Source: Nymphaea colorata
Lineage: Eukaryota > Streptophyta > Magnoliopsida > Nymphaeales > Nymphaeaceae
DNA: 64,000 bases
Assembly (NCBI RefSeq): GCF_008831285.2
Contig: NC_045151.1
Span: 10,280,571-10,344,570, forward strand
Reading direction: 5' to 3'
Position 1 is the first letter of the stretch; each line of letters begins with the position of its first letter. The translations under genes and the position numbers were made by a program. A model generated the notes under the pieces. The model did no database searches. It had not been told where the DNA came from and was given only the letters and a program-made list of their open reading frames with translations. Positions 2,737 through 63,843 of the stretch are shown here, in pieces.

Positions 2737-3278
2737 TAGCATTGGATACAAAGCAGATGAAACTAATCCAACTTAGTGATTCACAACTGAAAATAGCAGA
2801 AAATTATACATGTATTACTTTGCTCACCAAGTTCCAACACTTAATCTATAATTTTTAACTTTTTATCCTCATGCATTAAATTTTTTTCATGATGTAACAT
2901 TTGAATTTAAAATGAAAAACGCCAAGAAAAGTCATCAACCTCCCCATTTTTGCTGTCTTATAATTTTTGGGATTGATAATGGTTTCCAGTGTTAGTAGTA
3001 ACTGACATGAGAGGGGATGGATTAACTGTACAGGCGGACGTCTTATGAAAAAGATAATTTTAAAAATTATTGTCCTCAAATTTTAAGGCTTATACGGTTT
3101 ATTTTTTAGGATTCCTCGTACTATTGCTTGTGTTAGATCCTCATTTGTCATACCACCAACTAGGCCATTTGACCTGTTGAGTAGCTGGCCTGCTTGGTGC
3201 TTTGTTGACTAGGCCTGAAAGTCATAGGGCTTAATTGGTCTTCTAGTGCATGGGCGCCCTCTTTTTTATATTTATATG

Positions 3279-3932
3279 CAGTGTTATTTGTATCGTATGA
3301 TATAGAGCCGTATTGTATAATACATGTCATATAGGGCAGCAAAACCTATGCGATACCCTTACGATGCACATGATTTGCATGTGCATTGTAGGTGCATCGG
3401 AATGATATGGCTGCTGTATCATACGATAAGACTGATACAGTCCATATCTTACAATACGGAGCTATTTTTAAGAAAGTGGCATGGTGTCCCTTTTGATCGT
3501 TTTCTATTTTAAAACCGTTTTCCTTCATTTCTAACACTTCTAAGAACTTTGGGAAGGGGGAGTTTTTGCTGGTTTTGGAGAGCAATTTCCAAATAAATTG
3601 ACGGAGAAACTGCCGGTTTGAAGGCAAATTTACTCGTTGGAAATCCATTTGTATTTGTTAAAAAGAGGGCTTTTGTGTTTCTCAATTTAGTGGTTTACAT
3701 AAATTTTCATTATTTTCTAAAGTTTATGAAGATATTTGTTTAATGTGTTCTTAACATATTATGACTTATGAATGATGAATCATGAATGTTCATTATAGAA
3801 CATGTTTTTCATGATTTTTTCTGAATTTTCTCTATCTTTCTGATTGTTCTTTTTTATGAATTTAAAAAAATAATGTTACGATACATTATGATATGGCATA
3901 TAGGTCGTACAGTGCGCCTTTTACAAACATTG
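3279..3932. mobile_element. hAT-like MITE of the CGTATCG-palindrome family, unit A copy
   Basis: This non-autonomous element of 654 bp lies in CDKC intron 8. It starts CAGTGTTATTTGTATCGTATG and ends CGCCTTTTACAAACATTG, so its ends are related inverted repeats (CARTGTT...). It is flanked on both sides by the perfect 8-bp duplication TTTATATG (3271-3278 and 3933-3940). Near both ends it carries degraded copies of the self-complementary motif GTATCGTACGATAC. The middle is AT-rich with no transposase frame. CA...TG ends plus 8-bp duplications are typical of the hAT superfamily. Its orientation is opposite to the copies at 54924 and 62837. Confidence 0.85.
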
Positions 3933-4187
3933 TTTATATGTATGTGTGTGTGTGTATTATGTGATGTTACATTCAGTGGGTGAATGTGGTGTACTTGGCT
4001 TGCAACAATATGTTATGTTTGTTACTACCTTTGTCACTTTAAATTTCTGTTTTTTTGACTTAATGATTTTACTTTTAGTCAGCTGACTTGTACTATCTTT
4101 TTGAGGGCCCAACATGTGTCTACTTCTGAGTTTGACAGTAGGTTCCTGGTTGTCAAAATGGAGACTGGTGAGAACTAAGTCTAGACA

Positions 4188-7100
4188 TAGTAAAACTGAT
4201 CCTGGATGGGCGACTTGGGGGTTGGAAGATAGTCAGGTTAAGGTTTGGATTATTAGATCTGTTTCTGTTGATATTCAACCCCTTATTTTGTGAAAGTTGA
4301 CTGCATATGACATGTGGACTGTGCTTGCGATGATGTATGGCCGTAAAAAGTGAGTCCTGCGTACATATCAGATTAAACGTAGCATCTACTCTCTTAAACA
4401 GGGTGACTTGTCTGTGGCATCTTTCTATCCAGCCTGAAGACTAAATGGGAGGAACTGGATTATCATGTGAATGATGACTAGAAGTGCGGTTCTGATCATG
4501 AAATGTATTGGCAGAAAGAGTGGATGGACCGTACGTTTATTTTTCTGGGAGGTCTGCGTGATGAGTTTGAATCCATTAGGAGTCAAATTCTCAATTGTGA
4601 TGAGATCCCTGGAATTGAGGACGTGTATGCCCGGGTGGAATCTGAGGAACAACGCCGTCAAGTGATGCATATTGATGACTCTAATCAGGGTAGTTCTCCC
4701 TCTGCGTTTGTTAGCCGTGCTCCAGGGTTTGGGCAGCGTACTACTCGGCGATGTAGTCATTGTAACAAGTTGGGCCACTCTGTTGATTTTTGTTGGGATC
4801 TTCATCCTGAGAAGAGGCTCACCCGTGGTCGTCCTCCCTCTGGTAGAAGGGGTCCTCCTATGCCTGACACTAGCTCTCTCGGTGCTGAAAAACCGAAGCT
4901 TTCCGCTGACCAAATCAAAGAGTTACAAGCTTACATCAGCCGATTATCTACTACGAAGGAGGAAGCCTCCACGTTTGAGGGAGCTCAGTTAGCCCAAGCT
5001 CTTGTTGCGACTAGTGATCAAGGTAATTCCTTACTTGGAGATTGGGTAGTGGACAGTGGAGCCACTCATCATATGACAGGGAACCTTAAGATGTTTCAAG
5101 AGTACAAATTGTCTTCAGGGCAGCAACGTGTTTCTATGGCTGATGGGTCCTCGATCTCTGTGGCTGGAAAAGGGAGTTTGTCCTTATTAAATAAATATCT
5201 TCTGCATAATGCTCTTCATGTTCCCAATATTCCTGTGAATTTGTTATCTGTCAGTAGTATCACCAAAGAACTCAACTGCAATCTAATTTTCTCTGCTGAT
5301 CATTGTACCCTGCAGGACTTGGTGACGGGGAAGAAGATTGGGATTGGTTCGGTTATTGATGGCCTCTACAGACTGCCCGTACAGGTTGCCTCTGCTCTCA
5401 TTTCAGCCACAACCAGACAGTTCACGGGCGTGGAGGATAGGTCTAGCATTATGAGATGGCACGAGCGTCTTGGACATCTCCCATTCCAGCTGATTAAGAA
5501 GTTGTTTCCTAGGTTGTTTACTTCTGTTTCCATGGACTCCTTCACATGTGAAATGTGTCAGCTTGCTAAGCATGTCAGGGCTTCGTACTCTATTTCTATC
5601 AATAAAACCACTCGTCCTTTTGCCTTGGTTCACTCTGATGTTTGGGGTCCTTCGGGAGTACCCACTTGTCGTGGTTTTCATTACTTTATGACTCTGATTG
5701 ATGACTACTCCCGTTTTACGTTCGTGTACTTGTTGAAAGAACGTAGTGAGGTTCCTGTCATTGTAAAAAATTTTGTTGCCTTTGTCGAAAATCAATTTCA
5801 GACCTCTGTTTAGACTCTCCGTACTGATAATGCCAGGGAGTATGTCTCCCAATCCTTGGATGACTTCCTGCAGGGCAAGGGTATTGTTCATGAGACGTCC
5901 TGCAGTTATACTCCTCCTCAAAATGGCGTGGCCGAACGGAAAAATCGCCATTTATTAGATGTCACCTGAGCTATTATGTTCCACAGGCATGTTCCTAAGC
6001 GCTACTGGGGCGATGCTCTCCTCACTAGTGGTATGCCCACCTCATCAACCGTATGCCCACTCGTGTGTTGAATGGTCGTACTCCTTACTCTGTCCCACTC
6101 ATAACCCATGGCCTCTTACTCCTCGGGTGTTTGGGTGTGTTTGCTTTGTTCATAACCATAGTCCCACCATCAAGAAACTTGACCCTCGGTCTGTCAAAGC
6201 TGTCTTCTTGGGGTATTCCTCCACTCAGAAGGGATATAAATGTATTGACCCCACTACCTCCAAAATCTATGTCTCTCGGGATGTTACCTTTCATGAACAT
6301 GAGGCGTATTTTCCTACGAATCCTCTTCAGGGAGAGTGTATAGGGGACAGTGTGGAAGAGTATTCTCCAACTCAGTTTATTCAGTTTACGGACTTCTTGG
6401 ACTACAAACTTAGTCACAGTGTGGAAGATACATGCAGAAATGATACAGACACCCATGTGAAAGGGGGCCCTGTGGTTTATCAGCCCACATCCCGTGATCA
6501 TTTGTTTGGGCAGGTTTATACTAGAAAGAAGAAAGATGTGGTTGAGACTGTTGATGTAACCAATCCCAATCCTGTCAGTTCCCCGGATGAACCAAGTCAA
6601 ATGAATGAAGAGCTTCCCATAGCCCTGCGCAAGGGGACCAGGTCATGTACTTCTCACCCTATTAAGAGATTTGTCTCGTATTCAAAACTCAGTAAAGAAT
6701 ACAAATGCTTTATTACTACTCTGTCTATGTCTGTGATTCCCAGGGGTGTGGAAGATGCTAGAGAGGATCCTAAATGGCTTCAGGCTATGACAGAGGAGAT
6801 GGATGTCTTGACAAAGAACAACACGTGGGAAGTGGTAGATATTCCCAAGGGGACTCACTTAGTTGGTTTCAAGTGGGTGTTTAGTGTGAAGTATAAACCT
6901 GATGGCACTGTGGAACGGTATAATGCTCGTCTGGTTGCTAAGGGGTTCAACCAAAAGTACGGAATTGACTATCTTGAAACCTTTGCTCCTGTTGTGAAAC
7001 TGAAGACTATGAGGGTCATTTTGGCACTTGCAGTGCAAAATAAGTGGGCCATGGACCAACTTGATGTCAAGAACGCCTTCTTGAACGGTCATCTAGAAGA

Positions 7101-8282
7101 GGAGGTCTATATGAACATGCCTCCAGGATATGCTCAAAGTGGAAAATGCTGTCATCTCAAGAAGGCCCTGTACGGCCTGAAGCAGTCTCCTAGAGCGTGG
7201 TTTGAAAGACTGAGGGTGGTAATGAAGACAATGGGTACAAACAAGGAAACGGTGATCATACTTTGTTCGTTAAGCAGAGAAGCGGTCTGGTGAGCATCCT
7301 TCTTGTGTATGTTGATGATATGATTGTCACAGGCGATGATGAAGAAGATAAAAGGAAGATGAAGGAGAGGTTAGCTGCTGAATTTGACCTTAAAGATCTG
7401 GGAAAATTAAGGTACTTTCTGGGAATAGAGATTGCACGATCAGAGACAGGGCTTGTTATGAGCCAAAGGAAGTACACTCTGGACCTCCTGAAAGAGACAG
7501 GTAAACTAGGATGCAGGCCCTTTCTAACTCCAATGGAGTCAGGTACGAAGATAAGTATCAAAACTTGTAACATCCTGGATGAGGAATGAAAAGGACGGTA
7601 TCATAGGCTAGTTAGTAAGCTTATTTATCTTACTCTTACTCGCCCTGATATTACTTATGCTGTAAATGTGTTGAGTCAGTTTATGCATGCTCCTACGGAT
7701 TGTCACTGGAAGAGTGCAGAAAGAGTGTTGGGGTACCTGAAGAATAACCCAGGTAAAGGGTTACTGTATACACGGCAGGACAAACTTGATATTGAAGGAT
7801 ACTCGGACGCCGATTGGGCTGGTTGCACGGATACCAGAAGGTCTACCACAGGGTACTGCATCTTTCTAGAGGGTAACCTGGTGGTATGGAGGAGTAAAAG
7901 ACAGGAGGTCTGTTCTAGATCCAGTGCTGAGGCTGAATACAGGGCAGTTGCTATGGGAGTTACAGAGATGTTATGGCTAAAGATTCTTCTAGCAGATATC
8001 GGAATTGAAATTGATGAGAAAATGAAAATATATTGTGACAATAAGTCTGCTATTAACCTGACAAATAATCCCGTCCTGCATGACAGAACCGAACATGTGG
8101 AGATAGATCGCCACTTCATACGTGAGCGCATAGATTCGAAGGAGTTGATTCTTCCTTATATGAAGTCTGAAGATCAAATTGCAGATGTTCTAACTAAGGC
8201 CTTATGTACATCTCAATTTGAAAAGAATGTTAGCAAGCTTGGCATGTTTGACATGTATGCCAAGCTTGAGGGGGAGTGTTAG
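4188..8282 (+). pseudogene. Copia gag-pol remnant of element 1
   Basis: The polyprotein is broken. Gag has several stops before 4500 and then a CCHC zinc knuckle (CSHCNKLGHSVDFC, near 4754). The protease active site DSGA follows near 5052. The pre-integrase zinc region (HERLGH...CEMCQLAKH) lies at 5460-5580. The integrase core shows DVWGP, TDNA and NGVAERKN, so the D-D-E residues are in place, but stops occur near 5811 and 5967 and a frameshift near 6040. The reverse transcriptase has [13 protein letters not shown] and, after a frameshift near 7260, VYVDDMIVTGDD. A stop at 7587 precedes the RNase H part (7668-8282; YSDADWAG, SSAEAEYRA, CDNKSA). It cannot make protein. Confidence 0.9.
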
Positions 8283-13404: not shown

Positions 13405-15666
13405 AGCTGGAGCATAGATATCAATCATGCTCAGCTTGTTACAACCTCTCAGGAAATCGCCTATGGGAAGAGCCTTGGTAAACATATCAGCTGCCTGATC
13501 TTCAGAGGAGACATGAATAGTGCTAATAATTCATTCTTGAACTAAATCCCGAACATAGTGGCAATCCACTTCAATATGTTTTGTCTTTTCATGAAAAACA
13601 GGATTGTTAGCAATATAGGTAGCCGCCTTGTTGTCACAATACATCTTCATTGGGAGATTCACTGAAACACCCAACTCTAAAAGTAATGATCTGACCCATG
13701 ACATTTCAGCTGCAGTTTGAGCCATAGCCCTATATTCCGACTCAGTACTAGATCAAGCCACTACATTCTGCTTCTTGCTCCTCCAAGAAATAAGTACCTC
13801 CCACAAAGACACAAAAACCTGTGGTAGACTTCCTGTCATCTATAGATCCTGCATAATCAGCATCACTATACGCTTCGATGTCAACACCTTCTCCCTTTTT
13901 AAACCATAACCCCTTTCTGGGGGCTGATTTCAAGTATCTGACAATCATTAGAGCAGCATCCCAATGAACCTTTCGAGGCTTTTCCATGAATTGACAAGTA
14001 TGCTTCTTGCTTTTCCATGTAGTTTATTCACAACAAAGCTAATGTCGGGGTGAGTGACCGTCAAATACAGCAGTTTCCCTATAAGAGTTCTGTAAGATCT
14101 AGAGTCAAAAGGCTTTGATTCATCATCATGTATATGAATTCGGGGATTCATGGGAAGTGTGGTAGGTTTAGCTCCCAATAAACATGTTTCTTGCAGAAGA
14201 TCAAGAGCATATTTTCGTTGAGACACTATAATTCATTTACTACTACGAGCCACCTCATTACCAAGAAAATAACGGAGTTGTCCAAGGTCTTTTGTGACAA
14301 AGTTTTGTTGTAAAAACTCCTTTATCTGAGCTATTTCTTGATTACTTTCTCTAGTGAGAACAATATCATCCACATATACAATCAATATCACTATACTAGA
14401 TGTGCCTCGCTTGATAAACAATGAATGATCAAGCTGGGATCGTTGAAATCCACACTTAGATAAAACCTCAGTTAGCTTATGGAACCATGCACGAGGACTT
14501 TGTTTAAGTCCATAAATAGCCTTCTTTAATTTGCATACCTTGGAACACTCCCCTTGTCGCTCAAAACCAGGTGGTTGTTGCATATAGACGGTTTCAGACA
14601 GGTCTCCATACAGAAAAGCATTTTTCACATCCAGCTGAAATAGCGGCCACTCTCGCTGGACAACAAGAGATATAATCAGTCGAATAGTGCCCAACTGAGC
14701 CACGGGCGAAAAAGTCTCGAAAAAGTCAACGCCATAAGTCTGTGTATATCCTTTAGCAACAAGACGTGCCTTGAACCGTTCAACTGAACCATCAGAATGA
14801 TACTTGATGGTGAACACCCATTTGGAGCCAACCACATTACAGTGCATTGGTGGATCCACCAAATCCCAAGTCTCCCAAGAGATAAGAGCATCCATTTCCT
14901 CCTGCATGGCTTGCCGCCACCTTGAATCTAACAAGGCTTGATGGTGAAAAGACGGGATGATGTGGTTAGACAAAGCTCGATCAAACTGCACCAAACTTGT
15001 ACTCAAATGGTCAGTAGAGACAGAATTAGAAATCGGATGTAGTGTGCACTGTCGCTTGCCCTTGTGAATAGCAATGGGGAGATCATCTGCAGTGTGATCA
15101 TCATTTAAACCTGAGTCAGTCTTATCAGTGGAGCTTACCTCTTGAGAAGACACTGGTGGGCGGTTGAGAGAGGGACCCAAACAACGAGTATAAACTAATG
15201 GAGGATCAATGAATCGTTCACATGACATAGATTGAGATGGAAGGATCGACTCAAGTGACACTGGTGGAATAGGAAGAGGAACCGGTATAGGCATCTCAGA
15301 CGGAGGACTCGAAGGAGAAAAATAAGGACGAGACTCAAAGAATGTAACATCCGCACTGATAATCTCTTTCTTGGTCTGGGGATCAAAGCACTTATATCCT
15401 TTTTTATTTGCAGAGTATCCAATAAATACACATTTGATGGCTTGGGCAGCAAGTTTGTTTTTGTCTGGGCCTAGGATGTGTGCAAAGCAAGTGCATCCGA
15501 ATACTTTGGGAGGTATTGGAACCCTCAGACACATTACCATCAGCCATAGTAAAATTCCAACCAGAATTGTACTCACAATATGTATGTATAAGGTGCAGTA
15601 GTTCACTTCAACCAAGGCACGACAGCATAGAAGAATCTGGAACACACTTATGGCTCTAATCATCAA
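13405..15666 (-). pseudogene. Copia pol remnant of element 2
   Basis: Read from high to low coordinates: the post-core integrase region ([16 protein letters not shown], then [14 protein letters not shown]) at about 15500-15370; a variable Pro/Ser-rich linker; the reverse transcriptase from about 14900 ([43 protein letters not shown]); and RNase H from about 13980 ([26 protein letters not shown]). Stops lie near 14230 and 13742 and there is a frame change near 13985, so the chain is broken. RNase H is close to that of copia element 3, marking the two as related families. Confidence 0.88.
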
Positions 15667-16584
15667 CTCAGAAATTCACTAAAACAGGCAGCAACATAGG
15701 CACAAACTTAGGCAGCAACTCAACAAAATAATTTCAGCCGATGGCAGCAACACAAGCAGGAACTTTACGATTAGCAGCAATCCACAACTAATGAGACCTC
15801 AACTTATAGATTTCATATCCACGATCTGTAGATCATTCTACTTCTCACATCAAATTATATCCACAAGCAATAGATTGACTCTGCCCCACACGGTCAACAT
15901 AAAAATCTGATTACAGCAACAATAACCTCCACGAGATCCACTTAAGGATCAGGTTGAACACAAACACAAAGCAAATTGGCGGACTGTTTTCAGACGTGGA
16001 TAGCAGGCAGCACTTTCAGATGTCGATAATAGGTAGCAAACAAGCACAAGTTTGACAGTAGAGAAAACCTGTCTCACTTCAACGATGCAGAGAGAAAACA
16101 GAAATCTGCCTACTCCATACAATTTCAAACTTGTCTCACTTCAACGATGCAGGAAAAAGACTGAACCTGCCCACACGACATACCTTTGCCTGTGAGAATC
16201 CACCAGGCACCACACGGCTAAACAAATCAGACTGCCCTAGCAGATCCGACATTCTTTGGCCTGAACATCTTCCATGGCTGCACTTGAGTTAGATTTGATT
16301 TTGCAGCAAAGTCTAATCTGATTCACCATTTCAGCTACGTGATAAGCTTCAACGGCAGCAGCTTTCAGCAACTTCACGACAGCAGCAGCAACACAAGGGT
16401 GCTAATCACGTTTTCACATGTTAAAAACGTGATTAGCCCCTATCCAACCAACCAATCAACTTGCTTGTTTTGTAAACAACAAGAACCCTAGGTGTGAAAC
16501 CCTAGTTTGGCGGAAGAGATGAGAGATGAGAGGAGAAGGGAACCCTAGCCGTGAAACCCTAGATCACACAGCCCTAGGTCTAAA
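15667..16584 (-). other. Untranslated leader of copia element 2
   Basis: Roughly 0.9 kb lies between the primer-binding site and the first recognisable pol sequence. It is rich in AGCAGCAA-type repeats on the plus strand and has no gag or protease motif. Confidence 0.6.
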
Positions 16585-19440: not shown

Positions 19441-20057
19441 CAGTGTTATTTGTATCGTATGATATAGAGCCGTATTGTATAATACATGTCATATAGGGCA
19501 GCAAAACCTATGTGATACACTTATGATGCACATGATTTGCATGTGTATTGTAGGTGTATCGGAATGATATGGCTGCTGTATCATACGATAAGACTGATAC
19601 AGTCAATATCTTACAATACGGAGCTATTTTTAAGAAAGGGGCACGGTGTCCCTTTTGATCGTTTTCTAAGAACTTTGGGAAGGGGGAGTTTTTGCTGGTT
19701 TTGGAGAGCAATTTCCAAATAAATTGACGGAGAAACTGCCGGTTTGAAGGCAAATTTACTCGTTGGAAATCCATTTGTATTTGTTAAAAAGAGGGCTTTT
19801 GTGTTTCTCAATTTAGTGGTTTACATAAATTTTCATTATTTTCTAAAGTTTATGAAGATATTTGTTTAATGTGTTCTTAACATATTATGACTTATGAATG
19901 ATGAATCATGAATGTTCATTATAGAACATGTTTTTCATGATTTTTTCTGAATTTTCTCTATCTTTCTGATTGTTCTTTTTTATGAATTTAAAAAAATAAT
20001 GTTACGATACATTACGATATGGCATATAGGTCGTACAGTGCGCCTTTTACAACATTG
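19441..20057. mobile_element. hAT-like MITE of the CGTATCG-palindrome family, unit C copy
   Basis: This is the same insertion as in unit A, 617 bp long here, with the identical flanking duplication TTTATATG at 19433-19440 and 20058-20065. The right end is CGCCTTTTACAACATTG. Indels relative to the unit A copy (for example a deletion near 19668) arose after the unit was duplicated. Confidence 0.85.
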
Positions 20058-28125: not shown

Positions 28126-33793
<5,668 letters not shown>

Positions 33794-51700: not shown

Positions 51701-54700
51701 AAAACAAAGGTAAGGGAACGTAGTTGCAAGCTTGATAATGACCAACCATTAGTTACTATGGTAGATCAGAAAATTTGCAACTCATGTCTTCCTATTTTCC
51801 ACGTGATTGAACTGCTGCTCATTTTGTTTCCCTTAAAGTTGCCAGTTTCCTTTCTCTTCAATGTCAACCACAATTAGACATCAATATGTTAATTTGGCTT
51901 TTGGCATATATCTTTCATGGTGCCAGTAGAGCTTCCACATGCAGATGAACCTTGAACAGGTCTGAAAGTCATAACTGCTTAAGCTTTGAGCTTGCACTGG
52001 CTGTGCATTGAAGAACTTAAAGTATAGTTTTTATTGACAAGTTGCTTTGGCCTTTAGAATCCACCATGCACTACGTGATCACATTTCAGTAATCCACTTT
52101 GATCCATGTTTACGCCAACAAATAACAATACGTTTAAGATGAAAAATATGACAAATTTCTCACCCTTCCATTAATGTATGACCAAAGCTGATGAAAAATA
52201 GCCAGATATAATTAGCTCTTTTAACTCGTCTAAAAGAGAACCAATAATTTTAGAAAGGCCAATGCACTTTGTTTTTTTAGGGTTCTTTTCATAGTAAAAT
52301 TCTTTGAGGAACAAGAAACTATATACTTTTACAAGTTACAACTATACCAGACATCCTACAGTGCATTTGTTTTCATTTGAAGTCTGCAGCACGGAATAAC
52401 ATTGATCTGATATTAGCTTCCTGCATCACTTTAGACAAACAATTTTTGTTTACCAATTATCATGTATTGATACTTCTTATGATTCGTGGACTTGTGTGGT
52501 TAAGAAAGCCTTGTTATTGCCAGGCAGGCCTTTTTTTCAGATCTTTGATGCCATCGATAGATTAAAACTGTAACTGCTATAAAAATGCAATAAATCAATC
52601 ACTAAACAATTATAAGAAAATAAAGTACATCAAATTATTAGTTGTTCTAATTCACAATTGCATAAAAGATTTGATGTTGTTATACACTATAATAGTTTTA
52701 TCAAATCTTACATAATATATGAACTTTCTCTCATCATGCCAAATTTCCAGCTATTTTCAATGAGGATTGTTGAAATTAGGAAATTTATATTTAAGTGTGG
52801 TAGTTTTCTGATTATTTAAAAGTTAGAGTCTTCTTGAGTCATTTATATCTTTTTGTGTCTCTCTTGTGTAAAGACACTAGCCGACCCCTATTCTCTCTTT
52901 AAATAAGAGATTAGGGTTAGCAATGAACGTACGTTTTGTTTGTTCTCACTCTCTCTCTCTCCCTCTCGTTCTCTTCTCTTGTGTTCCCTCTCTTTTCTCC
53001 ATCTTTTGCAACATGGTATCAGAGCTGGTTATCTCAATCCTTCTCCGGTGACGGCTGATGTGATTTTCCGGCGATCTCTTCTCCTATTCTATCTCTTCCT
53101 ATTTCTTTCCTTTTCTATCTCTACCCTTCCTTTCTCTCTTCTCTCTGCTGATCGAGAAATAGTGGACAGTGTGGAAGGGGAACCTAATCACACGTGAGAG
53201 GTATGTGTGATTAGGTCCCTAACATGGATGTAGTGCAGCATAAGCAACTACGTGGAAGTTGCGGGTGGGAGTTGCTGTGGAACAGTTTTTCTTTTTCTCT
53301 CTGATCTGGAATGTGGAAGACTGAAAAGGGTTGTATCAGAAGCTTCTTAGTTGCTGCTGTTGAAGAAGAAACTCAGGCCAGATCACATTGGTCGTTGTTG
53401 TGTGGGAGACGACAAGATCAGCCTGAAATGTGGATCATATCAGATCTGATAAATATATATATATATCAATCTCTGGACGTGGATACATTGAAGCTGTGGA
53501 CATCAACAGAAATTTATATGCACAGCTGTGAGGGAGTCTACATTGGTTAATGTCTTAAGGACATTTCTCTCTCAAGACTGTTGGCTGTAACATGAACATT
53601 TGGGGACCTACACAATCTATTGGTACTTCCTTCCTACTCTCTCACCTCTGATTTTCTACGGCAGACTTCTGTGAGCAAGTCTGCTCACATCTTGGGCAGA
53701 TTTGTTTGCTCAAGTTAGGGTTTCTTAAAACCCTAAGTCGATCCATTCTTGAATTCGTGTGGAGGAAACCAATGTCGTGCAGGCAATTCTGATTGTTTTT
53801 GTAGAAGTCGTGGAATGACGCACAACACTGTTTTCTTATGTCGTTGAAGTTTGAGGTCACGTTGGAAGGTCTGAAGTTGTCTGAAAATAAGTTTTTTTTT
53901 GTTGGTTGTCGTTAGAAGATGTTGGCATAATCATCATTGTGACATTAGTGGCATGTGGCAGTGGTGCTGCGCGTGATATTGTTGATTTCTACTTTGCTGA
54001 TCAGCCCCTTGACATGTGACAGTGGTGCTGCGACTGCGAGTGATATTGTTGAGTTCTGTGTTGTTGATCAGCCCCTTACATGACTGATTAATTATAAGTT
54101 GGATGTTCTTTTGTGTGTTCAAACTGCTGCAAAATTGTTTTGGTGCTCCCTGCTGTGTTTAATATGGCTGAGATTAGCAAACCAAATGGTGGGAATGATT
54201 ATAAAGGAACTGGGAATTCCTCCTTTTTTGGATCTACAGTCACAGTTAGCATTGACAGATCTGAGTATGAGCAGTTTTTGGCACACATAGTCTCACAGGC
54301 TTCAACTTCCACTGTTTTGATTGATCGAGCTCTCTCTACGGGTACATCCACGCCTGATTCAAGTATCTCTTGGATTATTGACTCGGGAGCATCGAGACAT
54401 TTCTGCAGTAGACCTGGTTTGTTCACTGTTTTGCATAGATTCTCTCAGCCACGTCATGTTAAAATTGCAGATGGCAGAATGTCACCTATATTGGGTTATG
54501 GAGATGTGAAACTTTCTCAGTCTATGACCATTCCACATGTCTTATACGCTTCTGAGTTTCCTTCCAATTTGCTCTTTGTTATACAGTTAACTATTGATTT
54601 ACACTGTCGCATTATTTTTGACCCTGGTGCATGCTCATTTCAGGACTTACAAACTGGGAAGATTATTGGTGGTGGCTATGAAAAAGGGGGCGTCTACATC

Positions 54701-57700
54701 CTGTCAGTCCCTATGGGCCTTGCTGCTACCTCTTCTACATCAGATTCTACACCCTTTCAGTGGCATCTCAGACTTGGCCATCCTTCGGGGTCCAAGCTTC
54801 GTTCCATCCTACCTCACATTTCAGTCTCAGAGTCATTTCCATGTGAGGCCTGTCAACTTGGCAAGCATACTCGTAGTAGTTTTCCTTCGAGTCTTAGTCC
54901 ATCAAGTCAAGGGTTGTTTGATCCAATGTTATAAAAGGCGTAGCGTATCGCGTATCGGTCGAGCTGACCTATACGCTGTATCGTAACGTATCGCAAACGT
55001 AGCGTATCGTATCGTAAAATTAATTTTTTAATTTTAAAAAATATTTAAAAATCATAAAAAATAGAGAAAAATTATTAAAAATCTAAAAAAATAAACAAAA
55101 AATCAGAAATCAAGAAAAATATATTCAAATATAAAAAAGATCATCATACATAAGGAACATTCATGTGTGTCAACAACGCATTCAAAAATTAAAAATTAGA
55201 TATTCAAAATAACATAATAAGCATCCATGACAATTTTAAACTTAAAATTTTATAGAATCTTAAAACTTAGAGTCTTAGGACTTTGAGTTTTAGGACTTAT
55301 ATTACATCACAATTTTATAAGTTCAAAACATATAGTTATCAACTTATCATCTTTCATGATTTAACGATAATATTTTCCAAATCGATGAATCCTTGGTTAT
55401 TTTTTATGAAAATGTGCAAAATCTCTCCCTCCTACGTCTCTTGGAGTCTTTAAATACAAGAAGAGAGAGAGGGAGGAGTGTTTAAACTTTAAAAAATAAA
55501 AAATTTTGTGTTTTAACCCGTATCGTACGATACGGGGGTGTATCGCCCGTATCGTACGATACGGCCCCCGTATCGCACGTATCGTGCGATACGTGTACGA
55601 TATAGATGCGTATCGTCTTTAAACAGCGTATCGTATAGGTTTTCTTAACCTATACGATACGTATCGTACGATACGCGTCTGTATCGTACGATACGGATAA
55701 CATTGGTTTGATCTTCTTCATGTTGATGTGTGGGGTCCTAGCAGGGTTGCTAGCCGATCTAAGATTAGGTATTTTCTGGTTGTTGTTGATGATTACTCTC
55801 GAGTTAGTTGGGTATTTCTTTTGAAAGAAAGGTCTGAAGTAGTACATATCCTCAAAAACTTGATTATTGAAATAAAAACTCAGTTTGGTTCTCTGGTTAA
55901 GTGTATTCGCACTGATAATGCTCTTGAGTTCAAATCTTCTATCTTAATGACCTTTTATGCTGAAAATTGTATCTCTCCCCAATTTACATGTCCCCACACC
56001 TCACAACAGAATGGAGTTGCGGAAAGAAAACATAGACAACTTCTAACTGTTGCTCATACCCTAATGCTTCATAATCATGTACCTGCATACTTATGGGGTG
56101 ATGCCATACTCATGGCTTATTACCTAACAAATCGTTTACCATCATCCTCCATTGACAACAAAGTACCGATTAAACTTGTTTATCCCAATCGAAGCTTATT
56201 TCCTGTTGCACCTAAAGTATTTGGTTGTACTTGTTTTGTTCACATTCTTGGGCCCAAACATGATAAACTTACTGCTCAAGCCATTAAGTGTGTTTTCATT
56301 GGCTATCCTCGAAACCAAAAAGGGTACAAGTGTTTTGATCCGGTAACTCACAAAGAGTATATCAGTGCGGATGTAACTTTCTTCGAGTCTCAATCCTACT
56401 TCAGTCCTACTTTTGTGTCATCTGAGATGCCATGTCTTATTCCTCTACCTATCCCTCTAGTCCCATTGCAGTCTTTTCCCTCTCCTACTCCGACAATGAA
56501 TAGGTTCCAGGACCCTCCATTGGTATACACGCGTCGGCAGGATCCCTCTCATGGTCGACCATCAGAATCTTCTCAGGATATGAGCTCCATTGAAGTAAGT
56601 ATACCTGACATTGATCCTTCTCAGGACTTGCCTATAGCCCTACGCAACGGCAAGAGACAGTGTACTATGCATCCAATCTCACAATTTGTTTCCACTGATC
56701 ACCTTGATGACAACTTACAGCAGTTTCTTCATGCTATGACAGTTCATACTGTTCCAACTAGTCATCAACAAGCACTACTAGACTGTAAATGGCGAAAAGC
56801 CATGCAAGATGAGATGGATGCTCTCTTACAGCGTGGTACTTGGGAATTGGTTGATCCTCCTTCAAATTGTGATATTGTTGGCTCTAAATGGGTCTTTACA
56901 ATCAAGTACCATTCAGATGGGTCTTAGAGAGATATAAGGCTCGATTAGTGGCTAAGGGTTATACCCAGACGTATGGAGTTGACTTCTTTGAGACTTTCTC
57001 TCCTGTGGCCAGGTTATGTACTATTCGGCTCATTATCTCTGTTGCGGTATACTCCAATTGGCCTATGTATCAGCTGGATGTAAAGAATGTCTTTCTCTAT
57101 GGTGATCTTGAAGAGACTGTATATATGTAGCAGCCCCCAGGGTTCGAGCGACAGAGGGAGTGTAGAAAAGTGTGTCATTTGAAGAAGGCAATTTATGGAC
57201 TTAAACAAAGTCCTAGAGCGTGGTTTCACAAATTATCTGAGGTCGTTTCACATTGTGGATTTGAAAGATCTCCTTTGGACCATTCTCTATTCATCAAGAA
57301 GACCTCCAAAGGTATAGTTGTAATGGTAGTTTATGTTGATGACATTATCCTGACAGGTGATTGTGATCAAGAAATTTCGATCACAAAGACTTTCCTTCAG
57401 AAGCACTTTGTCACGAAAGATCTTGGTCACTTGCGATATTTTCTTGGCATTGAGATTGCTCATAACTCAGAGGAAATATGTACTTGACCTACTGCAGGAT
57501 ACAGGGATGTTAGGAGCCAAGCCGGCTAATCTTCCGATGAATCCACGTCTTCATCTTCATGATGATCAATCAGAGCTAGTAGATTCACGATCTTACAGGT
57601 CTCTTATTGGCAAGCTTCTGTATGTCATTGTGACTAGACCAGATATTAGCTTTGTTGTTGAGAAACTAAGTCAGTTTATGAAAAAACCTAGAAAAGTCCA

Positions 57701-60700
57701 TTGGGATGCTGCATTGATGGTTTTGAAATATCTAAAGTCATCTTCGGGCAGGGGCCTTTTTTTCAAGAAAGGTGAATCTCTAGAAATTGTTGCTTACAGT
57801 GATGCTGACTATGCAGGGTCTATTGAAGATAGAAAATCCACCACAGGCTTTTGTATCTTTGTTGGGGGCAACCTAATATCATGGAGAAGCAAGAAACAGA
57901 ATGTAGTTTCGAGATCAACTGCAGAATCTGAATATAGAGCAATGGCTCAAACGGCTACTGAGATGACTTGAGTTAAGTCTATGCTAACAAATATGGGTAT
58001 TGAAGTTTCTCTTCCTATGAGAATGTGCTGTGATAACAAGGCTGCCACTTACATTGCAAATAATCCAGTATTTCATGAGAGAACAAAGCACATAGAGGTC
58101 GATTGTCATTATATTCAGGATCTTATACAAGGAGGTGTTGTGTCTACAGTTCATGTAGCTTCTGAAGATCAGGCGGCAGATATGTTTACTAAGGCTCTTC
58201 CTATTGGTGATTTCTCTAGATGCTGTAACAAGCTGAGCATGATTGATATCTATGCTCCAGCTTGAGGGGGAGTGTTGAAATTAGGAAGTTTATATTTAAG
58301 TGTGGTAGTTTTCTGATTATTTAAAAGTTAGAGTCTTCTTGAGTCATTTATATCTTTTTGTGTCTCTCTTGTGTAAAGACACTAGCTGACCCCTATTCTC
58401 TCTTTAAATAAGAGATTAGGGTTAGCAATGAACGTACGTTTTGTTTGTTCTCACTCTCTCTCTCTCCCTCTCGTTCTCTTCTCTTGTGTTCCCTCTCTTT
58501 TCTCCATCTTTTGCAACAAGGATGATCCATCTTCATCTCACGATGGATGACTTCTGGCAATATTTTGTGCAATTAATCTAGTATGAGTTTGTGCCTTTCT
58601 TTTATTATCTTCTACAGAGCATTACATAATAGTTGATGGGATAACACAGTTAGACCTTAAACTAAAACTTAATATCATGAGGAAAGAATAATGTATCACA
58701 TTAAGTACTTGTGTATTAGAAGTTGCTACAGATTTATTATTTGTAGCTTTTTTGTTAGAACTTATTTGGGCTAGCTTCATGGATGCAAATTTCATTTGGT
58801 TTACATGCAAAACAATTCATAATCCTGTTCCTCTTTGTTAGATATGCACTTTAACATGATTATGATGTTCAAACCATTGTCGCAATTTTTTTTTTTGGTG
58901 AAATATTTCTCAGGCAGGAAAATTCAGAGAATTTAAAAATTAAAAGTAAAAACTAAAAAGTAAAAACCAGTAATAGAACTACCAAAATCAGAATTTTGTA
59001 TTCTTACAAAAAACATGATAAAAATCCAAAACAGGTAATGTTAAGACAAACTACGAAAAGATTAAGATATATTAAAAAAAATATTATTGAAAAAACAATA
59101 AATTTGAATTTTTGCTCCTTTTTCTCAAAATCATTTAAATTTTGTAGGTTATTTATAACATGGACAGATGCACTCTTTAGATTGTCAAGTTTTAAACTTA
59201 ATTTAATTAACTGCAGGTCCTCATAGCATATATTTTCAATTACTGTGCCTTCTCATATCTAATGTCTTTTACTCTAGCAAATGTTTTTCAACAATTAACT
59301 TTTTACTGAATTTTTATATTTTTTATCCTTTTTAAAATTTTCAAAGAAAAAAATGTTTTTTTACCACATATTACATTCTGTTATAATCTTCCTTTGCACT
59401 GAACACGTATAACTTATTACACTTTGTAACATATTGTGAAAATCAGCTAAATTGCAGAAATTGAAAAAGGAGAATTGTTGGGGAGCAACAAATTTTGAAG
59501 AAACATAAAAATAGTAGAATGGAATCGTCATATAACAAAATAAATTACCTGGAGCAGCACAAAGATCAAGAATGTGATCCCCTGGCAAAACATTTAATGC
59601 CGTGACAGCAGCTCCAGATGCAGCATCAATTCCATATATCTAAATTGAATCAACAAAATCTACTTAGTAACATATATTAAAAAAAAGAAATATTAAAATC
59701 AATATGGTAAATCCAGTAGTTATAATATAAATATGTGTGAGTGTTTGTGTTTGTGTTTGTGTACGTGTGTGTTTTTTAACCACGGTATGGGACAACACAA
59801 GACACGCCCCTGAAAGTAGATTACACTCTTTATATTGCAATGTAATTATACATTACATGGTACCTTATGCTCTTGGCGCACTTCAAAAGTTGCCAAATGT
59901 TATACTCTTTAGTCTTTAGTTTCTTAAATGATTATGGCTCAGCCTCTACCCGTTTTTATGAGTATTACATGAGAAGCACCTGCATTTTAGAGGGAAAAAC
60001 ATCCATCCGGGGACAATTTGGTGTTGAAACTAGAGGGACATCATGCATGCCATAAATAGGCAAAAGTAGACCAAGAAGTTGACATGTGTGGCTTTTCTAA
60101 CTGAATTCTTGTGCATTTGATGGTTTATTACTTTATGCAATTCAATGTTTCTTGATACCCATATTATTATTTCATTTTTAGCTAGTATGATTTTTCCACC
60201 ATTAACTTCTTTAGTATTTTCTGATTTTGTTATCTTGGGATTTTGAAATCCTTTTATTTTTTAAAAGTTCACATTTTTTACAATATGTTACAACTTACGA
60301 TGTGTTCTTTAACATATCTTAATTTGAGCAGAATCAGTACAAACTATAATACATTTTTTACAACATTACTCCAAACTTATAACACCATTTTTCATGATAA
60401 TATTGTGATGTTATTAAGAAAAATTCATTTTGGTGACAAAATCTCATAATATTATTTCCAGTAAAAAAGTCTTTTTGCAATAAAAACAAAGAAACATGTG
60501 AGGCCTTAGGTTTATAGTTGTTTCAATTGAATGAAGACTTGTAAAAGATGTCAAGGCCACGACAAGTCCTGTTCAAAATGATGTTTTTCGAAAACAAGAA
60601 GAGAGATAAACATGTTCATTCAGCATAGTGAGGGTATTAGAATCGGTAGATAGAGAAGGAGCTACTATGGGTGTATTTGTTTAAGGATCTTGATAGAGCC

Positions 60701-62099: not shown

Positions 62100-63843
62100 C
62101 TTAGTTGTTAAGGTGTCGTCTAAGCGACGCTTAGTCGTGGACTAGGCATGAGTCCACAGCCCTCGCCTAAGTCATGGACTTAGGCGAGGGGTTTGGTCTT
62201 GGCGCCAAGGCCAACCAAGGCTGGACTAGGCGCCAGCATGCCTAGTCCATGGAAGGTGACTTTTCACCTTCAAATTGTTTTCTGTTCAAAGTGTTTGTTT
62301 TGTGTTCTCAAAGTGTTTCCTGTGTGTATTATGTATTTCAAAGTGTTCAAAGTGTTTTTCTGTGTGTTCTACCAGTATTTATATATGAGTTTTGTATTTG
62401 TTTGTGTATATATTATAACTTGTTACATCAGTCAAAGTCAATGTCAAATCTTTTATGGTAACTGGTTGTTTCTTCTTCTAACTCTCCATACCCTGAATGC
62501 AATCCTAACAATTTTGGAAACTGATTTCTTCTTCTATCTCTCCATACGTTGAATGCAATCCTATCTCTATTGTTAATTGTTATGAGGAACTAATCTCCAT
62601 ACACAGAAAATTGTTGAAAGCCTAGCATTTGACCAGAGCCAACTATAGCCTGGCATTTCACTATTTGTCAAATACAACTTGAAAAACCTAAAGCTATTTG
62701 CCAATGCATTTGACCACAACCAACTATAGCCTAGCATTTCACTATTTGTCAATGCATTAAACATTTTATTTTGCTGTTTTATAAGTTGATTTTGACTAAT
62801 CCTAACTCGCTAACATGCTAACTTAACACATAAAACCAATGTTGCAAAATGTGTATCGTAAGCCGTATCAATCTGCCCAATAGATACGCTATATCGTAAA
62901 GTGTCGTAATCTATCGCATGTGTATTGTAAATTTATTTTTTTAATTCAAAAAAATAAAAAATAAAGAAAATTAGATAAATCAATAAAAATAAAAAATTTG
63001 TTTTTTTAAATGAAAAAACATGTTATACCTAATAGCAGGCTTATTATAGGTATAAAGTTACTTCACAAACATTAATAAGTAGTTATAATATCATATAGTA
63101 ACACAGCATGATCTAAGGCATCAGGAAACATAATTTATAAGATGATCCACATAATAACTCATAAGTAAGTCATAACATCCATAACACATCAAAAACCAAG
63201 TTTTACGTACATTATACATCACATCACAAGACAAAATTGTTCAATGTTAATGCAAATAACAAATGAAAACAGCTTCCTTCATAATCTTTATCATCTCATT
63301 CTCATTCTCATCTTTTATAGAAGGTAATAAACCTTCTTTATCTAAACAAGAATCAATCATCCATGCATAAATCTGACCTCAAATCGATGATTTCATGGTG
63401 AAACTGATTATTCCTTTTGAAAATTGCCACAATCTCCCCCTCCTTCAACTATTAGATATGTTCAGAAATGAAGAGGGACGCAAGTTTTAAAAATTAGTTT
63501 GAAAAGTTTTAACCCTATATTTTTCAAAATAGACATGTATCATGCGATACGCGGTGTATCGTGCGATACGCGGTGCATCGCCCTGTATTGTATGATACAG
63601 GCTGTGTACCATATTGTTAATTTAAAAGTACACCCCGTATTGCACGATACAGGCTGTGTATCATATCACAAATTAAAAAGCGACGATATGTATCGTACAA
63701 GACGGCCTCGTATCATACAATACATGCAGCACTGCATAAAACATAAAAGCCAGCATTTTAGAATTTAAAATAACTAAGCAAAATTGCAACGACTTTTGGA
63801 TGCCTTTTTAGGCTAGTCGCGCCTAGCGGCCTTGACAACTAAG
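62100..63843. mobile_element. Small DNA transposon (TTAGTTGTTAAGG-ended), host of a nested MITE
   Basis: The left end CTTAGTTGTTAAGGTG and right end CCTTGACAACTAAG are inverted repeats, flanked by the duplication CTCTGGAA (62092-62099 and 63844-63851). A ninth base can be assigned either way, so hAT (8 bp) and Mutator-like (9 bp) origins are both possible. The left subterminal part is packed with GGCG/CGCC palindromes (TAAGCGACGCTTA, CTTGGCGCCAAG). Without the nested element and its duplication it is about 840 bp. It encodes no transposase. Confidence 0.8.
62837..63734. mobile_element. hAT-like MITE of the CGTATCG-palindrome family, nested copy
   Basis: This 898-bp element begins CAATGTTGCAAAATGTG and ends CATGCAGCACTG. 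It is flanked by the perfect 8-bp duplication CATAAAAC (62829-62836 and 63735-63742). The palindromes near the right end are decayed (GCGATACGCGGTGTATCGTG, TGTATTGTATGATACA), so it is older than the 54924 copy. It has the same orientation as that copy. Confidence 0.88.

What the first reader, a model, noticed from the sequence alone, without database searches (positions are those of the whole stretch)
54924..55705. A hAT-like MITE family made of CGTATCGTACGATACG palindromes, defined by three perfect target duplications
Complete copies at 3279-3932 (duplicated at 19441-20057), 54924-55705 and 62837-63734 share CARTGTT-type ends, palindrome-rich subterminal regions and an AT-rich core. Their flanks are perfect, different 8-bp duplications (TTTATATG, GTTTGATC, CATAAAAC), so both ends of each copy are fixed exactly. 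Subterminal palindrome arrays of this density are unusual and could be transposase-binding repeats or could form hairpins. The family may be undescribed in this genome.
Basis: partly seen in the sequence, partly recalled or inferred. Interest (0 to 1): 0.75.

Follow-up and report, generated by a model that had tools for sequence, protein, structure and literature searches.

The report
Recently active hAT-type MITE family
A short jumping-DNA family scattered over a plant genome carries mirror-image DNA words at fixed distances from one end, and longer relatives with the same end carry a gene for the enzyme that probably moves it.

Summary
Three independent copies (E1, E2, E3) have CARTG ends and exact, different 8-bp target duplications. 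The exact 16-mer palindrome occurs only in E2; E1 and E3 carry decayed forms.

The host assembly (408 Mb, unnamed) was searchable. Of 40 E2-like copies 31 have perfect 8-bp duplications, as do 11 of 13 copies chosen by left tip alone; targets favour nTnnnnAn. Two copies on different contigs are identical over 784 bp. A palindrome lies at bp 12-25 from the right tip in 49 of 50 elements, where Hermes transposase binds a quasi-palindrome with two BED domains.

A likely partner was found: 24 of 100 listed right tips have a BED-zinc-finger ORF about 0.5 kb inside, always reading inward. Eleven paired elements (ten of 3,428-3,500 bp, one of 2,236 bp) all carry BED plus DUF659 in that orientation; five have open frames of 650 codons or more. 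So this is an ordinary kind of system with an unusually regular paired-site array. No hATC domain was detected beside the BED ORFs, the partner's duplications were not read, and no repeat library was available.

The parts
54924..55705 (+). E2: 782-bp non-autonomous element, intact tips
   Evidence: 40 scored genome copies including itself at 90-100% identity
54916..54923 (.). E2 left target duplication GTTTGATC
55706..55713 (.). E2 right target duplication GTTTGATC
54924..54932 (.). E2 left terminal inverted repeat CAATGTTAT
55697..55705 (.). E2 right terminal inverted repeat ATAACATTG
54945..55014 (+). E2 left subterminal array: six GTATCG half-sites, all on the + strand
   Evidence: 177 forward and 0 reverse in the first 130 bp of 37 copies
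55520..55533 (.). palindrome GTATCGTACGATAC, from bp 173 counted from right tip
55549..55562 (.). palindrome, from bp 144 counted from right tip
55579..55592 (.). palindrome with one change, from bp 114
55661..55674 (.). palindrome, bp 32-45 from right tip
55681..55694 (.). palindrome, bp 12-25 from right tip (present, within 1 bp and 3 mismatches, in 49 of 50 elements)
3279..3932 (-). E1: 654-bp element, opposite orientation (palindrome end at 3279)
3271..3278 (.). E1 target duplication TTTATATG (other copy 3933-3940)
19441..20057 (-). E1b: segmental duplicate of E1 with the same flanks
29955..30392 (-). E1c: more diverged partial segmental duplicate of E1
62837..63734 (+). E3: 898-bp divergent element
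62829..62836 (.). E3 target duplication CATAAAAC (other copy 63735-63742)
52764..58518 (+). Ty1/copia-type element that E2 interrupts; direct repeats 52764-53013 and 58269-58518, taken as its LTRs, are 98.8% identical

Best explanation
E1, E2 and E3 are non-autonomous cut-and-paste transposons (MITEs) of one hAT-type group in a plant genome. E2's subfamily is young and was probably moved by the transposase of longer (about 3.45-3.5 kb) elements that share its 9-bp inverted repeats and its right end. That transposase has an N-terminal BED zinc finger and a DUF659 domain and reads from the palindrome end inward. Shown: ends, duplications, empty site, copy number, fixed register of palindromes, shared tips, and the gene inside longer elements. 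Inferred: the half-site GTATCGTA is bound by one BED domain, so each GTATCGTACGATAC palindrome holds a pair; the pair at bp 12-25 loads the transposase beside the cleavage site and the further sites (bp 32; about 114-173) recruit more protomers, while the other end offers same-direction half-sites, making the two ends unlike. Because the palindromes lie upstream of the transposase start codon, about 0.5 kb from it at the tip, binding there may also repress the gene (inferred).
For: Perfect 8-bp duplications in 30 of 39 fetched copies plus E2 and in 11 of 13 copies chosen only by left tip. nTnnnnAn in 15 of 27 duplications, 10% expected, p about 6e-9; Hermes prefers the same pattern (PMC10368747, passages seen). 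Joining 60 bp on each side of E2 less one duplication gives an uninterrupted copia reading frame. Left tip 226 genome matches and right tip 374, backwards-read controls 0. Of the 100 listed left and 100 listed right tips, 37 pair on one strand and 34 of these are 664-811 bp apart. L022 and L023 are identical over 784 bp with different duplications. Palindrome at bp 12 in 49 of 50 elements, and at 12 and 32 in E1, E2 and E3. Of 100 listed right tips 24 have the BED ORF inside (25 matches, two at one tip), at 404-533 bp, all inward, none on the other strand or outside. Of 100 listed second-type left tips 35 face the ORF, none on the wrong strand. Eleven elements with second-type left tip and right tip, ten of 3428-3500 bp and one of 2236 bp, all hold BED and DUF659 on the expected strand. 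BED: Pfam E 1.5e-6. The BED-bearing copy at C6 has palindromes at 12, 32 and 52 bp and a right end homologous to the MITE (E 2.4e-53). Hermes BED domains bind a quasi-palindrome at bp 11-27 of the left end, cooperatively, two at a time (PMC10368747, sections 8 and 13 read; passages).
Against: No hATC dimerisation domain (PF05699) was seen by the BED ORFs: 0 of 150 listed hits lie within 4 kb of the 150 listed BED hits. Only 150 of 1113 candidates were scored, so absence is not shown, but a strong hATC in the near-identical copies might have been expected among them. Six of the 11 paired elements have frames of only 366-445 codons. Target duplications of the long elements were not read; the one pair of flanks that I read at C6 differs (GTTGAAAC and GATGTAAC, 6 of 8), though its left tip probably belongs to something else. 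The left ends of E2 and of the long elements agree in the first 9 bp and then only loosely. In 50 genome elements only 39 of 96 palindrome changes are CpG-type (37 of the 96 are one recurring A-to-G change), against 15 of 22 in E1-E3. No binding or movement was tested.
Confidence: 0.83

Rival explanations
1. The palindromes matter as DNA or RNA hairpins (cruciforms or small-RNA precursors), not as paired protein sites.
For: The last 195 bp of E2 fold far better than shuffles as DNA (z -12.3) and as RNA (z -11.5); E3 and E1 palindrome ends also, as DNA (z -4.1 and -4.7).
Against: Perfect palindromes fold by definition. In E1-E3 only 1 symmetric double change was seen against 1.25 expected; in 50 genome elements 2 symmetric doubles among 96 changes (no null run). 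The other end has half-sites in one direction only.
Confidence: 0.1
2. The palindromes are mainly operator sites for the transposase gene, and the MITE merely kept them because they lie at the gene's 5' end.
For: The BED ORF starts about 0.5 kb inside the palindrome end and reads inward at all 24 of the 100 listed right tips that have it.
Against: The palindrome nearest the tip keeps its place at bp 12 in 49 of 50 MITEs read, while inner ones shift or vary in number; a pure operator would not need a fixed distance from the cleavage point, and the MITEs have no gene.
Confidence: 0.12
3. The array is a by-product of tandem duplication of a 20-30 bp unit and has no function beyond the first site.
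For: Unit number varies: 3 to 7 sites within 2 mismatches over 37 copies; copies with one tip unit fewer (L034, L035, L042) or extra units (L031) still have perfect duplications. Within the young copies the palindromes are only one to two percentage points better conserved than their neighbours. Some Ds1 elements lacking AAACGG still move (PMC3260210 passages).
Against: The sites at 12 and 32 are kept in all three anciently separated elements of the window, and terminal stretches of 100-200 bp are reported as needed in Ac, Tag1 and Tol2 (PMC10368747 passages).
Confidence: 0.15
4. The family is a Mutator-like element with an 8-bp instead of 9-bp duplication.
For: None specific; 8 bp is near the MULE range (recalled).
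Against: Perfect matches stop at 8 bp, nTnnnnAn target, CARTG tips, BED-DUF659 gene in the long relatives.
Confidence: 0.02

Closest known systems
Hermes (hAT, house fly)
   Same: 8-bp duplications with nTnnnnAn; BED zinc finger; paired BED sites at bp 11-27 of one end; unlike ends with direction-biased sites (PMC10368747, sections 8 and 13 and passages)
   Different: Hermes motif is AAG(T/C), with only two palindromic pairs on its left end; here most sites at one end are 14-bp palindromes and the motif is GTATCGTA. The partner protein is BED-DUF659; no hATC seen.
Ac/Ds (maize)
   Same: Short non-autonomous elements sharing tips and subterminal hexamers with an autonomous source; AAACGG sites within 200 bp bound cooperatively; 8-bp duplications (PMC3260210 passages)
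   Different: Different tip (C/TAGGGATGAAA) and motif; the Ac motif is a hexamer that is not a palindrome.
Plant hAT MITEs, such as the 786-bp MITE in the citrus S2-RNase promoter
   Same: hAT assignment and similar length (PMC11022811 passages)
Plant BED-DUF659 transposases
   Same: BED followed by DUF659, often in one open frame
   Different: No difference established; that this architecture is counted as hAT is recalled, not from a call.

Membership tests
MITE | short, multi-copy, uniform length | tested here: met
   34 of 37 paired tips 664-811 bp apart; 226 left tips genome-wide
MITE | no coding capacity | tested here: met
   longest stop-to-stop frames 103, 73 and 87 codons in E1, E2, E3
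MITE | terminal inverted repeats and target duplications | tested here: met
hAT superfamily | 8-bp target duplication | tested here: met
   31 of 40 E2-like copies perfect, 11 of 13 tip-selected
hAT superfamily | nTnnnnAn target preference (reported for Hermes) | tested here: met
   15 of 27, expected 10%; weaker in a second set of 15: T at position 2 in 9, A at position 7 in 7
hAT superfamily | short terminal repeats of the form YARNG (rule recalled) | tested here: met
   CAATG/CAGTG tips
hAT superfamily | transposase with BED zinc finger | tested here: met
   in long relatives with the same right tip
hAT superfamily | C-terminal hATC dimerisation domain | tested here: inconclusive
   0 of 150 listed PF05699 hits within 4 kb of 150 listed BED hits, but 150 of 1113 candidates scored
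hAT superfamily | 8-bp duplications around the transposase-bearing elements | not tested
Mutator-like | 9-11 bp duplication (range recalled) | tested here: not met
   match stops at 8 bp

The most novel reading that the evidence does not exclude
The right end is a regular ladder of head-to-head BED-pair sites at 12, 32 and sometimes 52 bp (pitch 20 bp, about two helical turns) plus an inner group, set against a left end of same-direction single sites, so that a BED-DUF659 transposase tells the ends apart by site geometry rather than by motif. The same ladder sits at the 5' end of the transposase gene and could switch it off when occupied.
Probability: 0.35. Interest if true: 0.6.

Novelty: new member of a known kind. 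Interest (0 to 1): 0.42.

Why it matters
It joins a young MITE family to a likely transposase source in the same genome, with identical copies and open frames of 650 codons and more, so cross-mobilisation can be tested directly. The palindromes make the half-site unusually easy to read. Site geometry at hAT ends is, as far as I know, worked out in detail for only a handful of elements (Hermes, Ac and Herves among those I looked at), and the plant BED-DUF659 group could serve as another test case.

Tried and rejected
C5:13337901, a right tip near a PF05699 hit, looked like an autonomous element; reading 1 kb showed a 672-bp MITE (TSD ATTGCTAA) just downstream of a hAT gene's C-terminal domain. 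A 5,627-bp pairing of tips at C6:10869429-10875055 looked like the autonomous element; its flanks agree in only 6 of 8 bp and the size class with BED and DUF659 inside, with a different left tip, is 3.43-3.50 kb, so I withdraw the pairing; its right end and BED ORF stand. The 5,396-bp pair at C1 is explained by neighbour L021; the 2,264-bp pair at C5:25384383 was not read, but a second-type left tip lies inside it at 25385898. The 30 best PF05699 loci with 1.5-kb flanks hold no motif cluster. One of 100 left tips lies within 15 kb of one of 150 PF05699 hits; 1.1 expected. PF14372 was asked for but did not complete. The palindrome in viral contigs: 3 stretches, one site each, not followed. BED peptide against solved structures: one weak hit, E 0.12.

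Full report
Observation. The coordinates, tips and three 8-bp duplications are exact. Flank matches of lengths 5 to 13 were counted and only 8 gives full identity in each. E1 at 3279-3932 and its copy at 19441-20057 share their flanks and are 98.5% identical, so they are one insertion carried by segmental duplication; a third partial copy lies at 29955-30392. There are therefore three independent insertions. The exact 16-mer is found only in E2. E1 and E3 hold variants: of 22 changes in 15 sites of E1, E2 and E3, 15 are C-to-T or G-to-A at CpG positions, which fits decay of methylated CpG. In a larger set of 50 genome elements the share is 39 of 96, because one recurring A-to-G change makes up 37. 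CpG observed/expected is 2.49 in E2, 1.13 in E3, 0.88 in E1 and 0.46 in the window, so E2 is the least decayed.

The empty site. E2 lies in a Ty1/copia-type element between its gag-pre-integrase and integrase domains. Joining the flanks with one duplication removed gives an uninterrupted frame through the insertion point. The direct repeats taken as its LTRs are 98.8% identical over 250 bp, so E2 arrived after what looks like a recent retrotransposon insertion.

Genome copies. The window lies in an unnamed 408-Mb assembly. A search with E2 scored 40 of 1454 first-look candidates, all 40 matching at 90-100%. I fetched the 39 others with 300-bp flanks. Thirty-two reach both tips by the search table: 26 have perfect 8-bp duplications, four have 7 of 8, one 5 and one 2. 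Of the remaining seven, four have a shifted tip through an altered number of palindrome units and perfect duplications; three (L016, L037, L049) show none at the places tested and were left out of the later anatomy counts. With E2 that is 31 of 40. Duplications favour nTnnnnAn, 15 of 27 against 10% expected. In a second set (those 11 plus four others) T is at position 2 in 9 of 15 and A at position 7 in 7 of 15, a weaker form of the same trend. L022 and L023 on different contigs are identical over 784 bp with different duplications; L039 matches both except for 15 gap positions. The family has been active very recently.

Anatomy. Positions are counted from the right tip. The palindrome GTATCGTACGATAC begins at bp 12 (within 1 bp and 3 mismatches) in 49 of 50 elements, 37 E2-like and 13 tip-selected, and sites within 3 mismatches lie at 12 and 32 in E1, E2 and E3, which differ at 36-48% of aligned positions. 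A second group lies at about 114-173 in E2. Site number varies from 3 to 7 over 37 copies. The first 130 bp of the left end hold GTATCG in one direction only: 177 to 0 in 37 copies, and none reversed in the 13 others. Within the young copies palindrome positions were more conserved than their neighbours by only one to two percentage points, so selection on them cannot be read from those copies. The palindrome ends fold well, but in E1-E3 compensatory changes are at chance.

The partner. A 27-bp left tip occurs 226 times (up to 2 mismatches), a 25-bp right tip 374 times (up to 1), and their backwards-read controls 0 times. Only 100 places per search are listed. Reading inward from one right tip (C6:10869429) I found a BED zinc finger ORF. 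Searching with its 163 residues gave at least 150 genome matches; among the best are eight with 99% identity and a 650-codon open frame. Of the 100 listed right tips 24 have this ORF 404-533 bp inside, all inward; no listed tip has it on the other strand or outside. A second left-tip type, taken from MITEs in L086 and L094, gave 164 matches, control 0; 35 of the 100 listed face the BED ORF, 33 of them at 2.8-3.6 kb, none on the wrong strand. Pairing these left tips with the listed right tips gives 27 elements: 16 between 672 and 1537 bp, one of 2236 bp and ten of 3428-3500 bp. All 11 of the last two groups hold BED and DUF659 on the expected strand; the DUF659 frames are 650 codons in three, 671 and 741 in two, and 366-445 in six. 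The right end of the C6 copy has palindromes at 12, 32 and 52 and is homologous to the MITE's right half. So E2-like MITEs look like internal-deletion derivatives that kept the palindrome end and 5' leader of such elements, with a left end of a related but different type.

Mechanism. Hermes transposase binds a quasi-palindrome at bp 11-27 of its left end with two BED domains, cooperatively (PMC10368747, sections 8 and 13 read; other passages). Here the nearest palindrome covers bp 12-25. I infer the same use, with half-site GTATCGTA. Ac transposase binds several AAACGG sites within 200 bp cooperatively, though some Ds1 elements without them still move (PMC3260210 passages), and Herves transposase binds its two ends unequally (PMC3143072 passages), so arrays and unequal ends are usual in hAT elements; what is unusual, by comparison with these, is that most sites at one end are palindromes.

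Limits. No hATC domain was found by the BED ORFs among 150 listed PF05699 hits of 1113 candidates. Duplications of the long elements were not read. No repeat library and no species name were available. Text searches of open papers for the motif and the tips (20 of 138 listed) gave no relevant title, which does not show that the family is undescribed.

Noticed in passing
window 1-43126: Much of this stretch matches other parts of itself in pieces of about 0.1-2.5 kb at 82-99% identity, with CDKC-kinase-like gene pieces (Pkinase match below Pfam's cut-off; the CDKC name is recalled).
   Followed up: partly
window 52764-58518: Ty1/copia-type element with 250-bp direct repeats 98.8% identical, interrupted by E2; further copia coding pieces at 4482-8282 and 14233-15675.
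   Followed up: partly
L094 1-314: A MITE of this group (TSD ATTGCTAA) sits just downstream of the C-terminal domain of another hAT gene.
   Followed up: yes
L086 and L088: Second MITEs close by with their own 8-bp duplications (CTGTCACC, GTAAGCAC, read by eye); the one in L086 has the other left-tip type.
   Followed up: partly
G000 genome: 150 scored hATC hits of 1113 candidates and 150 scored DUF659 hits of 1131: the genome looks rich in hAT-type genes; a second BED-DUF659 group (about 47% identity, 640-codon frames) is also present.
   Followed up: no
L031, L034, L035, L042: Copies differing in the number of palindrome units at the tip still carry perfect duplications.
   Followed up: partly
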